From positions 1-64,000 of the forward strand of contig JAKASE010000004.1 of assembly GCA_021819135.1 (NCBI GenBank): DNA of 64,000 bases, given 5' to 3'. This DNA comes from Thermoplasmata archaeon. GTDB taxonomy: Archaea; Thermoplasmatota; Thermoplasmata; Lutacidiplasmatales; UBA184. The notes beneath the pieces were generated by a model. That model was not told the DNA's origin. It saw only the letters and a program-made list of their open reading frames with translations, and did no database searches. Shown here one piece after another: positions 33,418 to 39,068 of this stretch (its first letter is position 1; every line of letters begins with the position of its first letter). Made by a program: the position numbers and the translations under genes.

Positions 33418-36375
33418 CTAGGCGCGGCGGACCCGCCGGCGCAGATCCCGCTCGGCTGCGTCCGGCCCGAGCGCCGGGCTCGGGTCGATCGGGTTCGGCG
33501 GGTCGCCCCCGAACCGGGGATATTCCGGGTCCGGCCGGGGCTCGTCGCCCAGGAAGTCGTCCTCCGGGGACTCCTCCCGCGGCCGGCCCGGCCGACGCGC
33601 CGGACGCGGACCCGCCTTGAGGGACCCCTCGGAGTCCGCCGAGAGCTGCTTCATCAGATTGAGCCAGATCCTTCCCTGGTGGGCGATCGTTCCCTCGAGC
33701 CGGTCGCGGAGATCGCTCGTCTGCTCGAGGAGCTCGCCTTCGACGCGGCGCATCTCGCGCTGCAGCTCGCGCCGTAGCTCCCGGACCCGGGACTCGCCGT
33801 CGTCGGTCCCCGGCCCGCGCTTTTCGAGCTCGCCGACCTTGAGCCAGGTCTTCCGCACGAGCGGCAGGACCCGGTCGCTGAGGACGAGGATCCGGCGGTC
33901 GAGGTCGTCGGCCTCCTGCCGGAGGTTCCGCTCGATGCGGGCGACCTCCGTCTCGCGCTGCTGGAGCTTGGTCTCGAGCCGTTCGAGACGGACGATCGAC
34001 TCCTCCTGGGAGGCCTTGAGGCGCACCTCGGCGTCGGCGAGCCCCGCGGCGACGATCTTCTCCTGGCCCGACCGTGCCCCCTCGAGCGCGCGGGCGACAC
34101 GGTCCCGGACCAGGGCGTCGAAGCGGTTCGAGTCGACGGTCTTCGAGAGCGACTGGTCGACGTCGTTCTTCAGGCGGGCGAGGAGCTCGACGTACTTCTC
34201 CCGCTCCCGCTCCTGGTTCTCTCGGAGCTTCTGCTCGACGAACGCCTGCATCCGCACCTGGAGGGCGGCGATCGAGGAGGTACCCGACTCGGTCACTTCC
34301 GCGACCCGGGCCCCCTGCTCGTTATCGAGCCGCTCCTCGGCCTGGTGGATCCGCTCGTCGGCGAGGCCGAGGATCTTCTCCCGCTCGGCGGTGAGGGCGC
34401 TTCCGAATCGGGTCTCGAGGTCCTTCGTCCGGCCGTCGATCAGGATCGCGAGACGGGTCTCGAGATCGCGCACCTCCTTGGTCCGGTGCTGCTCCGCCTC
34501 CGCGTCCCGCTGGTCGAGGATCTCCCGGAACCGGCTCTCGACCGACTCCCGCAGGGCGGTCCCCTGCTCGCGCGACTCGGCGAGCTCGAGGTCGAGCTGG
34601 GCCACGAGCGCGGCCCGGAGCTCCTCCTCGCCCCGCACCGAGCGGGCCTTGAGATCGTCCACCTCGTGGTGGAGCTCCTCCCGGAGCCGTTCGGCCCACC
34701 GCTCGCCCGCGGCCTGGACCGACTGTTTGAGCTTCTCGGAGAGGTCGGTGATCGCCTGGTCGCTCCGCAGGACGACCCGTCCCTCGATCTCGTCCAGCGA
34801 CCGCGCCGGATCGGGGGCGGGACGGGACTCGAGCGCCGCGATCCTTGGCCCGAGCTCCGTCTCGAGCCGGGCCACGGCCCCTCGAAGCTCGGCCGCAAGG
34901 TCCCGCAAGTGCCCGTCGAACGTGGTGAGGACCCGCGCCTCGATCTGCTTCTCGTCCGGAACCGGTTCGCGGACGCGCGCGAGCTCGGCGACCTTCTGGT
35001 CGACCAGCCGCTCGAGATGGTTCACGTCGTCCGACGCGACCTCCGCCCGGGGCGGAGGGATCATGGCCGGGGACGGGGCGGTCAACGGGCCCGGTCCTGC
35101 CGGGGGCGGGGAGGGGGTCGGCCGGCTCGTGGGATCATCGCTCGTGGAGAGCGGAACGGTCCCGGGGGTCGCGCTCGAGGGGTCCCGGACCTCGGTCGGG
35201 CGCTTCAGCCACGGCGGGAGCGGGGTCCCCCCGTCCGGTCCCGAGGGGACCGGAAGTTCCGTATGAACGGCCACCGGATGCGGGGTCGAAATCGACGGCT
35301 GGGCCTGGACGTACTCGTTCGCCCGGCGGGCCGCCTCCCCGCTCATCGCGACCGAGCGTCCCTTCGGACGGGAGAGGAGCAGCGCCGCGGTCTCCATCGC
35401 GGTGCCGATGCGCCACATCGCCTTGCGGCGGTCGCGTCCCCCCTGGCGATCCGGATCGTGGAGCTCATGCGGGGTCCGGGACGACTCGACCAGATCGACC
35501 CGACGGGCGATCTCGGCGAGCTTCTCGTCCTCCTGGCCCCGCGCGTACTGCAGGACCAGGGGCAGGGTCCCCCGCTCGCGGGCGGTCGGCGGCCGGGTCA
35601 GGTCGCGGAGGGCGATCGGGGCCTCCTCCCAGCTTTCGAGCCGCTTCGAGTGCCACACCCCCTGCGCCTCCGGTCTCGGGACGCGCATCACCGCGAGCGC
35701 GAGCGGCATCTGCTCGGTGAACTCGTGGATGTTGACCTTCGCCTCGGGGAGGAAGTAGGGGAAGACGAGGAACGCCCCGAGCGAGACGAGCGAACCGGGC
35801 AGCATCCGCACGAGGTCGAGGACGACCTGCGCCGCCGGCTCCCACGCGTCCGACGCGACCACGACGACCGGCTCGGTCGTGCCGCGGTGGAAGAGGAACC
35901 CCTCCCCGACCGCCTGGTAGACCGACCCGTCCGGCTCGGCCCCGGGACGGGCGGGGGCCGACGGGCTGCCCATCGTGAGGTGGGCACGGATCACTGCCTC
36001 GCCGAACTCGCCGGTGGCGAGGAGGTCCTCCGTGGAGAAGACCAGGGTCTTCATCCCGAGCCGGGGACGGTCCTCGGTCGAGAGGAACATCCGCCCGACG
36101 CAGGTGTACCGGCCGTTCGCGGCCGGATAGAGGAACAGGTTCGGGTAGAACGAGAGCGGCTGGGAGGGGTTGGGGTCCCAGTAGTCATGGGTGTCGGCGA
36201 CGTTGATTGTGAGATGTCCAAGAAGCCGCACGGTCTCAAGGGTCTCGCGACGACCGGGGAACTCCTCGGGGATCGTCGTGTAGCCGGGGCTCTCGGCCTC
36301 GTTGTCGACCTGTCGGCACCAGATGACGGCGACCGGCGAGAGCGACGCGGACGTCGCGAGGTTCGCGCCCGCCAT
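33418..36375 (-). CDS. large coiled-coil protein with N-terminal globular domain
   Basis: 986 aa; N-terminal ~250 aa globular (SLSPVAVIWCRQVDNEAESPGYTTIPEEFPG...), Pro-rich linker, ~500 aa Glu/Arg-rich heptads; TGATG overlap with the upstream GTPase gene. Confidence 0.8.
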   Translation of the reverse strand: MAGANLATSASLSPVAVIWCRQVDNEAESPGYTTIPEEFPGRRETLETVRLLGHLTINVADTHDYWDPNPSQPLSFYPNLFLYPAANGRYTCVGRMFLSTEDRPRLGMKTLVFSTEDLLATGEFGEAVIRAHLTMGSPSAPARPGAEPDGSVYQAVGEGFLFHRGTTEPVVVVASDAWEPAAQVVLDLVRMLPGSLVSLGAFLVFPYFLPEAKVNIHEFTEQMPLALAVMRVPRPEAQGVWHSKRLESWEEAPIALRDLTRPPTARERGTLPLVLQYARGQEDEKLAEIARRVDLVESSRTPHELHDPDRQGGRDRRKAMWRIGTAMETAALLLSRPKGRSVAMSGEAARRANEYVQAQPSISTPHPVAVHTELPVPSGPDGGTPLPPWLKRPTEVRDPSSATPGTVPLSTSDDPTSRPTPSPPPAGPGPLTAPSPAMIPPPRAEVASDDVNHLERLVDQKVAELARVREPVPDEKQIEARVLTTFDGHLRDLAAELRGAVARLETELGPRIAALESRPAPDPARSLDEIEGRVVLRSDQAITDLSEKLKQSVQAAGERWAERLREELHHEVDDLKARSVRGEEELRAALVAQLDLELAESREQGTALRESVESRFREILDQRDAEAEQHRTKEVRDLETRLAILIDGRTKDLETRFGSALTAEREKILGLADERIHQAEERLDNEQGARVAEVTESGTSSIAALQVRMQAFVEQKLRENQEREREKYVELLARLKNDVDQSLSKTVDSNRFDALVRDRVARALEGARSGQEKIVAAGLADAEVRLKASQEESIVRLERLETKLQQRETEVARIERNLRQEADDLDRRILVLSDRVLPLVRKTWLKVGELEKRGPGTDDGESRVRELRRELQREMRRVEGELLEQTSDLRDRLEGTIAHQGRIWLNLMKQLSADSEGSLKAGPRPARRPGRPREESPEDDFLGDEPRPDPEYPRFGGDPPNPIDPSPALGPDAAERDLRRRVRRA

Positions 36376-37547
36376 CACGACCTCTTGGGAGCGCTGGCCC
36401 GGCGCTCGATCACGCGCTCGCAGGCCCGGGCGAGCGGGAGGGTCGTGTTGACCATGACGGGGACCCCCATCGTCGGCGTCCCCACGTTGGGTGCCTCCTC
36501 CCCGCTCTCGCCGATGAAGAGCGGGTGGCCCTCCCCGGTGGAGACCGCGCTCGAGACCAGGAAGACATCCTCCTTCACGGAGATCCCGCGTCCCTCCTGC
36601 GCCACGAGGATCGTGCCCATCCCGGCCCCGTCCCGGCGGAGGAGGAAGTCGGTCGGGTCGAACGAGGATCGGAACGCGCGCTCCCGGACCGATTGCTCGA
36701 CCTCGGTGTAGAACTCCTTGAGCTTGTCGGCCTTCGAGACCGCGATCACGAGCGGCAGGTTGCGCGTCCGCACGTACCGGAAGACGCCGCGGGCGAGGTT
36801 CACCTGCTGGGCCTGGTCGCGGAGCGACGGGAGGCCGGGGGAGAGGAGGAGGATGATCGCATCGGCCCCTTGGACGAACCGGCCAAGCAGCGTGAGGCCC
36901 CGGCGCCAGAGGTCCCGCCGGTCCGGCCGCCAGGAATCGAAATGCGGGATCACCTTGCACGTCCGCTCGGCGACCTCGCCGTCCGGGGCGTCGATCCAGA
37001 GCCGGTCGTAGGTGAAGTAGTCGGCGATGATCCCGCCGGCCTCGTCGATCGTCTGGAGCTCCATCGGCCGCGACGCCGCCTCCCCGTTGGGGGCGCCGTA
37101 GCGGAACCGCATCTTCATCTCGACGAACTGGTTGAACTTCGTCGGGAGCGGATACTTCGTCAGGATCCCCTGGTCCTCCCGGCCGGCGGCGAGCTCGACC
37201 CAGAGCTTCCGGCGGTCCTCCATCGGCCGGTTCACGTAGTAGCGGGTCGTCGTCTCGAGGCTGCCCTCCGGGTCGGTGGGGTCGGTCGTCTCGTACGTCG
37301 TCTCCTCGAGCGCCACATCGTTCTCGAGGTCGCCGTAGAGCGGGAGCGTGCCGGCGTCGGCACGCGTCGGGACGTACAGGATCGGAAGGTTGAGACCGAA
37401 GTGACCGGAGAGGAACCGGAAGTACGTCGTCTTGCCCGACGCCGGGATCCCGACGACCGCGATCCGGGCCGTATCGACCGACGGCTTCGCCTCGCGCTTC
37501 GTTCCCGCGGGCCGGCGGGTGCGGGTGGTGACCTTGACCTCAGCCAT
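36375..37547 (-). CDS. P-loop GTPase
   Basis: G1 GIPASGKT, G3-like TIDEAGG, G4 SKADK. Confidence 0.85.
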   Translation of the reverse strand: MAEVKVTTRTRRPAGTKREAKPSVDTARIAVVGIPASGKTTYFRFLSGHFGLNLPILYVPTRADAGTLPLYGDLENDVALEETTYETTDPTDPEGSLETTTRYYVNRPMEDRRKLWVELAAGREDQGILTKYPLPTKFNQFVEMKMRFRYGAPNGEAASRPMELQTIDEAGGIIADYFTYDRLWIDAPDGEVAERTCKVIPHFDSWRPDRRDLWRRGLTLLGRFVQGADAIILLLSPGLPSLRDQAQQVNLARGVFRYVRTRNLPLVIAVSKADKLKEFYTEVEQSVRERAFRSSFDPTDFLLRRDGAGMGTILVAQEGRGISVKEDVFLVSSAVSTGEGHPLFIGESGEEAPNVGTPTMGVPVMVNTTLPLARACERVIERRASAPKRS

Positions 37548-37565
37548 GGTGGTCCCGCGTGCCCC

Positions 37566-39068
37566 CTACCGCATCTCCGCGAGGCATATTTCAATGAAGT
37601 CCAGCGCCCCTTCCACCGCCGCCCCCGAGCTCGCGAGGTCGAGTCGGGCGTCCTGGAGGAGCCCGAACACCTCCTCGACCGCGGCCTCGTGGCGGAGCGC
37701 CGCGTCCTGGAGGTCGTCGGTCCCCGCGATCCGGGTGAGCTGGTAGGTCCCGCGAAGCTCGAGGAGCTTCGAGAACAGGCCCATCACGCGCTCCCGCGAG
37801 TGGGTGCCGTTCGAAGAGAGCGAATGCTCGGTCGTGTCGATGAAGCGCACCAGGGTCTCGGTCTCCTTGTCGTTCTGCATCCGGGCCTGCAGCATCGCCA
37901 GCCGCCGGAGCACGGCGGCCTGTGTGGTCGCCGGGAGCTTCTCGGCCTCCCCCCATGCCACGAGGAGCGACCGCGCCGCCTCGACGATCGCGTGGCGCGC
38001 GTACTGGATCCGCGCCTCCCAGTAGTGGTACGTCACCCGGGGAAGGACCGCCTGGGCGCGCGCCAGCCGCTCGAGCGCGACGTCGTACTGGCCCTGCAGG
38101 TACGCCTCGACGACCTCGCCGAGGGGACCGTACCGCTCCTTGAGGTAGGCCGGCGGGCCGCCCGCGACCCCGAGCACGCCGATCTCGAGCTCGGGGGACT
38201 CGTGGAAGCCGTCGGCGCTGTCCGCCCGCGCTGCTTCGTGCGCCGCCTTGATCCGGCCCACGGTCGCGTGCTGCTGGGGCTCCTTGAGCGCGCGGGCCGC
38301 GCTCGCGGCATGCCGCGCGAGCTCCTCCGGGTGGAGGTCCTCGATCGGCAGGTCGTCGTCGTACCCGACGTCGATGAACGCATGGACCATCTGCGCGAAG
38401 AGGGCGGAACCGGTCGTCACTTCCTGGTAGCCGAACGCCGGGGCGAGCCCGATCGCCTGGGCGCGCGTTTCCATTTGGGAGAGGAGCCCGTGCATGCTCC
38501 CCGCGTCGACCCCCTTGTCCCGCTCGGCACCGCTGCCGATCCCGATCAGGCGGAAGGAGAGGCGCGAGTTCGCCGGGAGGATGTACGGCACGAGATCGAT
38601 CCGTCCTTCGGGGAGCGGACCGTCCGGCGTCGGCCGGACGTCGAACCGCTGCGAGGCGTTGTCCCAGCCGTCGGTGACCAGGACGAGGTTCCCCCGCACC
38701 CCGTCGGTGCCGCTGCGAAGGAGGTCGGCGCCGACGGCGATCGCGTCCCAGATCGCTGAGCGCCCGCTCGGGGCCAGCATCGAGATCAGGTTCTCGATGT
38801 ACGGCAGGTTCTCCCGGTGGATCTCCGCGAGCGGCACCGGGACGCGGACGACCTCGGTGAACGTCACGAGACCGAACAGGGAGCCCGACTCCGAGGCGTC
38901 CTGGAGGATGCGGAAGACCGCGGTCCGTGCGACCTCGATCTTCTGACGCGGGGGTCGGCCCTCCTCCGACTCGGGGAGGGGGGCGAGCATGCTCTTCGAG
39001 AGATCGAGCAAGAGAACGTTCCGCTCGCGCGGCGTGGACGGTGGGGAGGGATTCGGTTCGTTCTGCAT
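37566..39068 (-). CDS. vWA-domain protein with helical C-terminal region
   Basis: MIDAS DLSKSM (DxSxS), NLVLVTDGWDNAS, then alpha-helical repeats. Confidence 0.88.
   Translation of the reverse strand: MQNEPNPSPPSTPRERNVLLLDLSKSMLAPLPESEEGRPPRQKIEVARTAVFRILQDASESGSLFGLVTFTEVVRVPVPLAEIHRENLPYIENLISMLAPSGRSAIWDAIAVGADLLRSGTDGVRGNLVLVTDGWDNASQRFDVRPTPDGPLPEGRIDLVPYILPANSRLSFRLIGIGSGAERDKGVDAGSMHGLLSQMETRAQAIGLAPAFGYQEVTTGSALFAQMVHAFIDVGYDDDLPIEDLHPEELARHAASAARALKEPQQHATVGRIKAAHEAARADSADGFHESPELEIGVLGVAGGPPAYLKERYGPLGEVVEAYLQGQYDVALERLARAQAVLPRVTYHYWEARIQYARHAIVEAARSLLVAWGEAEKLPATTQAAVLRRLAMLQARMQNDKETETLVRFIDTTEHSLSSNGTHSRERVMGLFSKLLELRGTYQLTRIAGTDDLQDAALRHEAAVEEVFGLLQDARLDLASSGAAVEGALDFIEICLAEMR

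What the first reader, a model, noticed from the sequence alone, without database searches (positions are those of the whole stretch)
33418..39068. vWA - P-loop GTPase - giant coiled-coil operon: candidate undescribed multi-component system
Seen: three tightly packed minus-strand genes (18-nt gap, then TGATG overlap). They encode a MIDAS vWA protein (DLSKSM), a GTPase (GIPASGKT, TIDEAGG, SKADK) and a 986-aa protein with a novel-looking globular N-terminus, Pro-rich linker and ~500-aa coiled coil. Established: vWA plus NTPase pairs (MoxR/vWA) and GTPase-centred systems with vWA and effector/adaptor proteins act as assembly or conflict modules in prokaryotes. Inference: the coiled-coil protein is the scaffold or effector switched by the GTPase, with the vWA protein as adaptor. 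I do not recognise this combination as described.
Basis: partly seen in the sequence, partly recalled or inferred. Interest (0 to 1): 0.72.

Follow-up and report, generated by a model that had tools for sequence, protein, structure and literature searches.

The report
Archaeal GTPase operon with DENN-like regulator
Three neighbouring genes in one family of uncultured archaea always travel together and look like a molecular switch (a GTPase), a regulator whose predicted shape resembles regulators of eukaryotic membrane-traffic GTPases, and a docking protein; if confirmed, a GTPase-regulator architecture thought to be eukaryotic would also exist in archaea outside the Asgard group.

Summary
In detail: a tight minus-strand operon encodes a MIDAS vWA protein (500 aa), a P-loop GTPase (390 aa) and a 985-aa protein with globular head, Pro-rich linker and coiled coil. 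The genome is a Lutacidiplasmatales-type Thermoplasmata archaeon. The trio is a real unit. It is linked in every locus long enough to show it (76 loci), also where all flanking genes differ. It is missing as a block, with clean empty sites, in eight genomes (two losses on a flanking-gene tree). Convincing relatives occur only in one GTDB family; plasmid and viral searches found none. It is single-copy, vertically inherited and evolves at housekeeping rates, which argues against a conflict system. AlphaFold2 of the head (63 sequences, pLDDT 87, pTM 0.88) shows longin strand-helix order, then an alpha/beta and a helical part. Its best PDB match is the DENN protein SMCR8 (E 1.3e-3, prob 0.69, poor global superposition), and four more longin/DENN-family chains are in the top 18. 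Best reading: a cytosolic GTPase switch with a longin/DENN-like regulator-scaffold and a vWA adaptor. The GTPase leans weakly towards DO-GTPases; GAP1 homology was tested and not found. The regulator role is inferred.

The parts
37566..39068 (-). vWA protein gene, 500 aa, first gene of the operon
   Evidence: Pfam VWA_2 E=3.3e-8; all 16 members match VWA_2
38640..39017 (-). vWA domain (residues 18-143)
   Evidence: Pfam VWA_2/VWA over the cut-off
38988..39005 (-). MIDAS motif DLSKSM (residues 22-27); the TDG motif with D133 is also conserved
   Evidence: D22, S24, S26, T132, D133, G134 invariant in 16 sequences
37569..38381 (-). C-terminal half of the vWA protein (residues 230-500), probably helical, weakly TPR-like
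   Evidence: weak TPR-family hits in a minority of members, best ANAPC3 E=0.0014; conserved C-terminal EMR
36375..37547 (-). P-loop GTPase gene, 390 aa, second gene
   Evidence: one copy per genome
37428..37451 (-). G1/P-loop GIPASGKT (33-40)
   Evidence: conserved in all 19 members as GIP[AS]SGKT
37032..37046 (-). G3/Walker B DEAGG (168-172)
   Evidence: invariant; G1-G3 spacing 133-136 residues
36726..36737 (-). G4 motif SKAD (271-274)
   Evidence: invariant
33418..36375 (-). Head-linker-coiled-coil protein gene, 985 aa, third gene; start overlaps the GTPase stop (TGATG)
35881..36336 (-). Longin-like N-terminal part of the head (residues 14-165); invariant R103, R105, G107, K109 lie at the strand 4-5 hairpin
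   Evidence: AlphaFold2, pLDDT 87.3 and pTM 0.88 for residues 1-350; Foldseek; invariants
35356..35880 (-). alpha/beta and helical part of the head (residues 166-340), DENN-like order of elements
34966..35325 (-). Pro-rich linker (residues 351-470)
   Evidence: 22% Pro
33676..34965 (-). Coiled-coil rod (residues 471-900), fast evolving and variable in length
   Evidence: composition and heptad score; whole protein 560 to about 1100 aa among relatives; p-distance 0.60

Best explanation
The operon encodes a cytosolic GTPase switch module. The P-loop GTPase cycles between GTP and GDP states. The head of the third protein, predicted to combine a longin-like domain with an alpha/beta and helical DENN-like part, binds that GTPase as its cognate regulator (exchange factor or activating protein), while its rod oligomerises and holds the complex at a site or tethers partners. 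The vWA protein docks a partner through a Mg-dependent MIDAS site and bridges it to the complex through its helical C-terminal half. The nearest working analogies are MglA with MglB/RomR in bacteria and Rab/Arf/Rag GTPases with longin-DENN regulators in eukaryotes. Shown here: the gene unit, the conserved G and MIDAS motifs, and a confident fold prediction for the head. Inferred: regulator-GTPase pairing, the direction of regulation (GEF or GAP), oligomerisation, and any cellular process (polarity, envelope or membrane organisation).
For: Unit: linked in 76 loci as far as contigs reach, including loci without the usual flanks (L115 lies beside complex I genes); genomes without the GTPase lack the other two (one exception, G042, is split by contig ends); eight empty sites with S17e directly beside PPAT; absence needs two changes on the flanking-gene tree. 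Head: pLDDT 87.3, pTM 0.88, order b-b-a-b-b-b-a-a then alternating b-a then helices, which matches the published longin, DENN, d-DENN order (PMC3521125); best PDB match SMCR8 with ARF1, E 1.3e-3, and in the top 18 two Lokiarchaeota longin chains, the Lst4 longin domain and a GATOR1-RAG chain; viral library best E only 0.1. Longin/DENN/roadblock proteins bind GTPases (PMC3521125, PMC10933270). The three genes evolve like housekeeping genes and follow the same tree. No segment hydrophobic enough for a clear membrane span.
Against: Foldseek E is just above 1e-3, TM-scores are 0.14-0.34 for the relevant hits and the SMCR8 superposition is poor (rmsd 17.9); no sequence-level match to any DENN or longin family. 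The GTPase model failed (pLDDT 34) and the GTPase is not a Rab/Arf/MglA-type small GTPase by sequence. No complex was modelled. Localisation and process are unknown.
Confidence: 0.5

Rival explanations
1. A diverged archaeal member of the DO-GTPase/GAP1 GTPase-centred conflict systems, with the coiled-coil protein in the place of GAP1 and the vWA protein as peptide-binding component.
For: DO-GTPase2 is the most specific weak Pfam hit (5 of 19 members, best E 0.043); hhalign 89-91% against archaeal DO-GTPase2; shared D-x-A-G G3 motif and long G1-G3 spacing; published systems also carry vWA proteins and coiled coils (PMC7159879).
Against: The hhalign control against DRG GTPases scores nearly as high (87%) and the matches are short. 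Head versus GAP1-N2: probability 0.1-0.2%. No variable effector, no mobility, one copy per genome, housekeeping rates.
Confidence: 0.2
2. A vWA plus NTPase co-chaperone pair, like MoxR/vWA, that assembles or matures another complex, with the GTPase in place of the AAA+ ATPase and the coiled-coil protein as tether.
For: vWA protein with MIDAS directly followed by an NTPase gene; weak similarity of the vWA part to cobaltochelatase and BatB-type vWA proteins.
Against: No AAA+ gene in the unit; the NTPase has G4 SKAD and is GTPase-like; no constant metallo-enzyme neighbour.
Confidence: 0.12
3. A translation- or ribosome-associated factor set, since in most species it sits beside S17e, eIF6, L31e, PDCD5 and S19e genes.
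For: Conserved synteny with ribosomal genes in most loci and ribosomal-protein-like conservation of the GTPase.
Against: vWA and S17e are transcribed divergently; in one group of genera the trio sits beside complex I genes; two lineages lost it while keeping the ribosomal genes.
Confidence: 0.08
4. Three adjacent but functionally unrelated genes kept together by generally slow rearrangement.
For: The whole region is syntenic within the genus, so co-occurrence there is weak evidence on its own; one deletion can remove adjacent genes.
Against: The trio stays together where all flanks differ (L115-L117, L122), and the deletions remove exactly these three genes in two lineages; translational overlap.
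Confidence: 0.08

Closest known systems
Longin-DENN GTPase regulators of eukaryotes (SMCR8/C9orf72, FLCN/FNIP-Lst4, Nprl2/3)
   Same: Order of longin, alpha/beta and helical parts in the predicted fold; best PDB match is SMCR8; SMCR8 also has a coiled coil (PMC8336837)
   Different: No sequence similarity, low TM-scores; archaeal; encoded in an operon with a GTPase that is not a Rab, Arf or Rag by sequence
MglA/MglB (roadblock) polarity modules
   Same: Prokaryotic GTPase and a putative longin/roadblock-superfamily regulator encoded together
   Different: MglA is a small Ras-like GTPase and MglB a short roadblock protein; here a long insert lies between G1 and G3, the head is bipartite with a long coil, and there is a vWA partner
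DO-GTPase2/GAP1-N2 systems (Kaur et al. 2020, PMC7159879)
   Same: GTPase with D-x-A-G G3 motif and long G1-G3 spacing, larger partner encoded downstream, some systems with vWA and coiled-coil proteins
   Different: DEAGG instead of DxAGE, G1-G3 133-136 against 75-92 residues; no GAP1 homology; no variable effectors
MoxR-vWA ternary systems
   Same: vWA protein with MIDAS next to an NTPase and a third partner
   Different: No AAA+ ATPase; the NTPase is GTPase-like; no effector domains

Membership tests
DENN module | Longin, then alpha/beta DENN, then helical d-DENN fold | tested here: inconclusive
   Order of elements fits and SMCR8 is the top PDB hit, E 1.3e-3, but TM 0.23 and rmsd 17.9
DENN module | Sequence match to DENN-family profiles | tested here: not met
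   No DENN family among Pfam hits of 63 members; no PDB sequence hit
DENN module | GEF or GAP activity on a GTPase | not testable with these tools
   Needs biochemistry
Longin superfamily | b1-b2-a1-b3-b4-b5-a2-a3 fold | tested here: inconclusive
   Same order in the model; longin chains 8yqg and 4zy8 in the top 9 but E 0.3-0.5 and TM up to 0.34
DO-GTPase2 (PF19993) | Pfam profile over its cut-off | tested here: not met
   5 of 19 members, best E 0.043
DO-GTPase2 (PF19993) | Specific profile-profile similarity | tested here: inconclusive
   89-91% but short; DRG control 87%
GAP1 system | GAP1-N domain in the partner protein | tested here: not met
   No match at E 0.01 in the own genome; hhalign 0.1-0.2%
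GAP1 / VMAP conflict systems | Mobile neighbourhood with variable effectors | tested here: not met
   Three constant genes, vertical pattern, no effector
vWA domain family | vWA fold with MIDAS | tested here: met
   VWA_2 E 3.3e-8, DxSxS and TDG invariant
P-loop GTPases | G1, G3 and G4 motifs | tested here: met
   GIP[AS]SGKT, DEAGG, SKAD conserved in 19 members; G4 is S/T-KxD type, so nucleotide specificity is still to be measured
MoxR-vWA systems | MoxR AAA+ ATPase in the unit | tested here: not met
   The trio has no AAA+ gene

The most novel reading that the evidence does not exclude
A non-Asgard archaeal lineage has a true longin-DENN-type GTPase regulator, fused to a long tether-like coiled coil and encoded with its own GTPase and a vWA adaptor. 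The DENN architecture, known only from eukaryotes in the sources read here, would then have a prokaryotic counterpart.
Probability: 0.3. Interest if true: 0.85.

Novelty: new variant of a known kind. Interest (0 to 1): 0.6.

Why it matters
DENN and d-DENN domains are described as parts of a eukaryotic module whose longin domain may derive from prokaryotic GTPase regulators (PMC3521125). A conserved archaeal operon that pairs a GTPase with a longin/DENN-like protein would give a direct, testable case of that ancestry or of convergence, in a lineage outside Asgard archaea. It also gives a possible function for gene families that arose in the Lutacidiplasmatales ancestor, most of which lack homologues (PMC9287336).

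Tried and rejected
Gas-vesicle GvpQ hit to the coil (E 6e-4 but 20 bits against a cut-off of 100): coiled-coil artefact. EAD2, syntaxin, apolipoprotein and similar hits: single members, coil composition. Defence system: no PADLOC hit. GTPase structure: AlphaFold2 failed at pLDDT 34 with 15 close sequences, so no fold search was made with it. Head as GAP1-N2: a by-eye resemblance around D-x(2)-GR-x-G was tested with 16 archaeal GAP1 sequences and failed. Virus or plasmid origin: no relatives in viral contigs or plasmids. MoxR/vWA: no AAA+ partner.
Full report
Observation. The three genes are as described: vWA 37566-39068, GTPase 36375-37547, head-coil 33418-36375, all minus strand, with an 18-nt gap and a TGATG overlap. 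The third protein is 985 aa. Codon third-position G+C of the trio (0.92-0.95) matches the neighbours (0.88-0.95), so they are native.

Where it is. The window is on a 2.2-Mb, 91%-complete genome. Related records are Thermoplasmata MAGs, one named Candidatus Lutacidiplasma silvani, so this is a Lutacidiplasmatales-type archaeon. Flanking genes, named here from their sequences, are S17e, eIF6, L31e, PDCD5 and S19e on one side and a phosphopantetheine adenylyltransferase-like gene (PPAT), a DUF5611-like gene and an M50-like protease on the other.

Is it a unit? In 76 loci from a scan of 84,980 species vWA, GTPase and head-coil are adjacent in the same order wherever the contig is long enough. Within the genus the whole region is syntenic, so that alone is weak. 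Two findings are stronger. First, in other genera of the family (L115-L117, L122) none of the usual flanks is present, yet the trio is intact; in L115 it lies by complex I, GNAT and methyltransferase genes. Second, of 14 genus members in which the GTPase was not found, 13 also lack vWA and head-coil; the other, G042, has both on contig ends. In eight genomes (L175-L182) S17e and PPAT lie next to each other with nothing between. On a tree of eight flanking proteins the absent genomes fall in two groups, two changes being forced by well-supported branches (quick method, SH-aLRT only). The rooted reading is two losses of exactly these three genes.

Distribution. With profiles, the GTPase was found in 74 of 400 genomes of the class at convincing E-values, all in one GTDB family and at least seven genera; the remaining hits (E above 4e-4) cover only P-loop-sized fragments. 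The head was found in 49 of 300, all in that family. No relatives in viral contigs (patterns matched but none confirmed) or plasmids. The scan of genome contigs reaches close relatives only, so distant bacterial relatives are not excluded. A published reconstruction places 383 gene-family originations in the Lutacidiplasmatales ancestor, of which only 22% have close arCOG homologues (PMC9287336); the trio would fit that pattern, by inference.

Evolutionary mode. Pairwise distances of the trio correlate with those of flanking housekeeping genes (r 0.79-0.86; coil 0.73). Mean p-distance is 0.24 for the GTPase, 0.34 for the head and 0.37 for vWA, against 0.20-0.43 for the seven housekeeping genes compared. 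The coil is fast (0.60) and the whole protein ranges from 560 to about 1100 aa. This is a constant module with a flexible rod, not a diversifying effector system.

The vWA protein. VWA_2 E 3.3e-8, MIDAS DxSxS and TDG invariant. The C-terminal half is probably helical, with weak TPR-like hits in a few members.

The GTPase. G1 GIP[AS]SGKT, G3 DEAGG and G4 SKAD are conserved in 19 members. Generic P-loop hits occur in nearly all members, DO-GTPase2 in 5 of 19 at E 0.043 or worse. Profile comparison gives 89-91% to archaeal DO-GTPase2 but 87% to DRG, both over short stretches. The G1-G3 spacing of 133-136 residues exceeds DO-GTPases (75-92), GPN (94) and DRG (46). I leave it as an unassigned P-loop GTPase with a weak lean to DO-GTPases. 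Its structure model failed.

The head. AlphaFold2 with 63 sequences gives pLDDT 87.3 and pTM 0.88. Strands and helices run 16-21 E, 31-35 E, 42-58 H, 74-85 E, 90-99 E, 105-114 E, 115-133 H, 150-161 H: the longin order. Then 170-174 E, 178-191 H, 201-205 E, 216-222 H, 225-231 E, 239-250 H, 255-258 E, and helices to 335. The published DENN module is longin, an alpha/beta sandwich with five strands, then helical hairpins (PMC3521125); here four strands are seen. Foldseek against the PDB ranks SMCR8 first (E 1.3e-3, prob 0.69, 387 columns), 70 times better than the next hit; ranks 7-9 are two Lokiarchaeota longin chains and the Lst4 longin domain, rank 18 a GATOR1-RAG chain. The viral library gives nothing better than E 0.1. 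Against this, no E-value is below 1e-3, superposition is poor (TM 0.23, rmsd 17.9), and sequence profiles give no DENN hit. I rate a longin-like first half about 0.6 and a DENN-like whole about 0.4. The most conserved surface-loop candidate is the hairpin with invariant R103, R105, G107 and K109; a role like an arginine finger is a guess.

Mechanism. Best reading (0.5): the head regulates the adjacent GTPase, the rod oligomerises and positions it, and the vWA protein docks a partner. Shown: gene unit, motifs, fold prediction. Inferred: binding, direction of regulation, process. Longin- and roadblock-superfamily proteins act as GTPase platforms in all domains (PMC10933270), which is why the pairing is proposed.

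Comparison. Not a member of GAP1 or VMAP systems: GAP1 homology was tested and not found, and no variable effectors exist. Not MoxR/vWA. It works most like MglA/MglB or a GTPase with a longin-DENN regulator; membership in DENN is open. Literature searches found no paper holding both 'Asgard' and 'DENN domain' in the library searched; the library lacks most subscription journals, so absence there is not proof of novelty.

Noticed in passing
L219 (G128:C1:1117000-1133000) and L222 (G195:C10): Archaeal DO-GTPase2 gene directly beside a GAP1-N2-type gene (PF20013 E 0.012 and 5e-4, below the cut-off of 24 bits) and, in L219, a second weak DO-GTPase: archaeal instances of the Kaur et al. systems.
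   Followed up: partly
L221 (G090:C1:664000-682000): Archaeal DO-GTPase2 with a GrpE gene and two DnaK-like genes (judged from sequence), resembling the HSP70 theme described for bacteria.
   Followed up: no
L218 (G002:C13:8510-9529): A genome of the same genus that lacks the trio carries a different protein over the DO-GTPase2 cut-off (27.1 bits).
   Followed up: no
L061: Record titled 'bacterium isolate clean3188' has the full archaeal gene order (S19e to trio); probably a mis-titled archaeal MAG.
   Followed up: no
L088, L089, L095-L097: In some relatives 1.5-3.6 kb of extra sequence lies between the coil and the PPAT gene; content not examined.
   Followed up: no
GAP1-N2 proteins in L219, L222 compared with window residues 16-115 of the head: By eye both have a G-Y motif after the first strand and D-x(2,3)-R-x-G before a later strand; no statistical support. 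A structure model of GAP1-N2 would tell whether it too is longin-like.
   Followed up: partly
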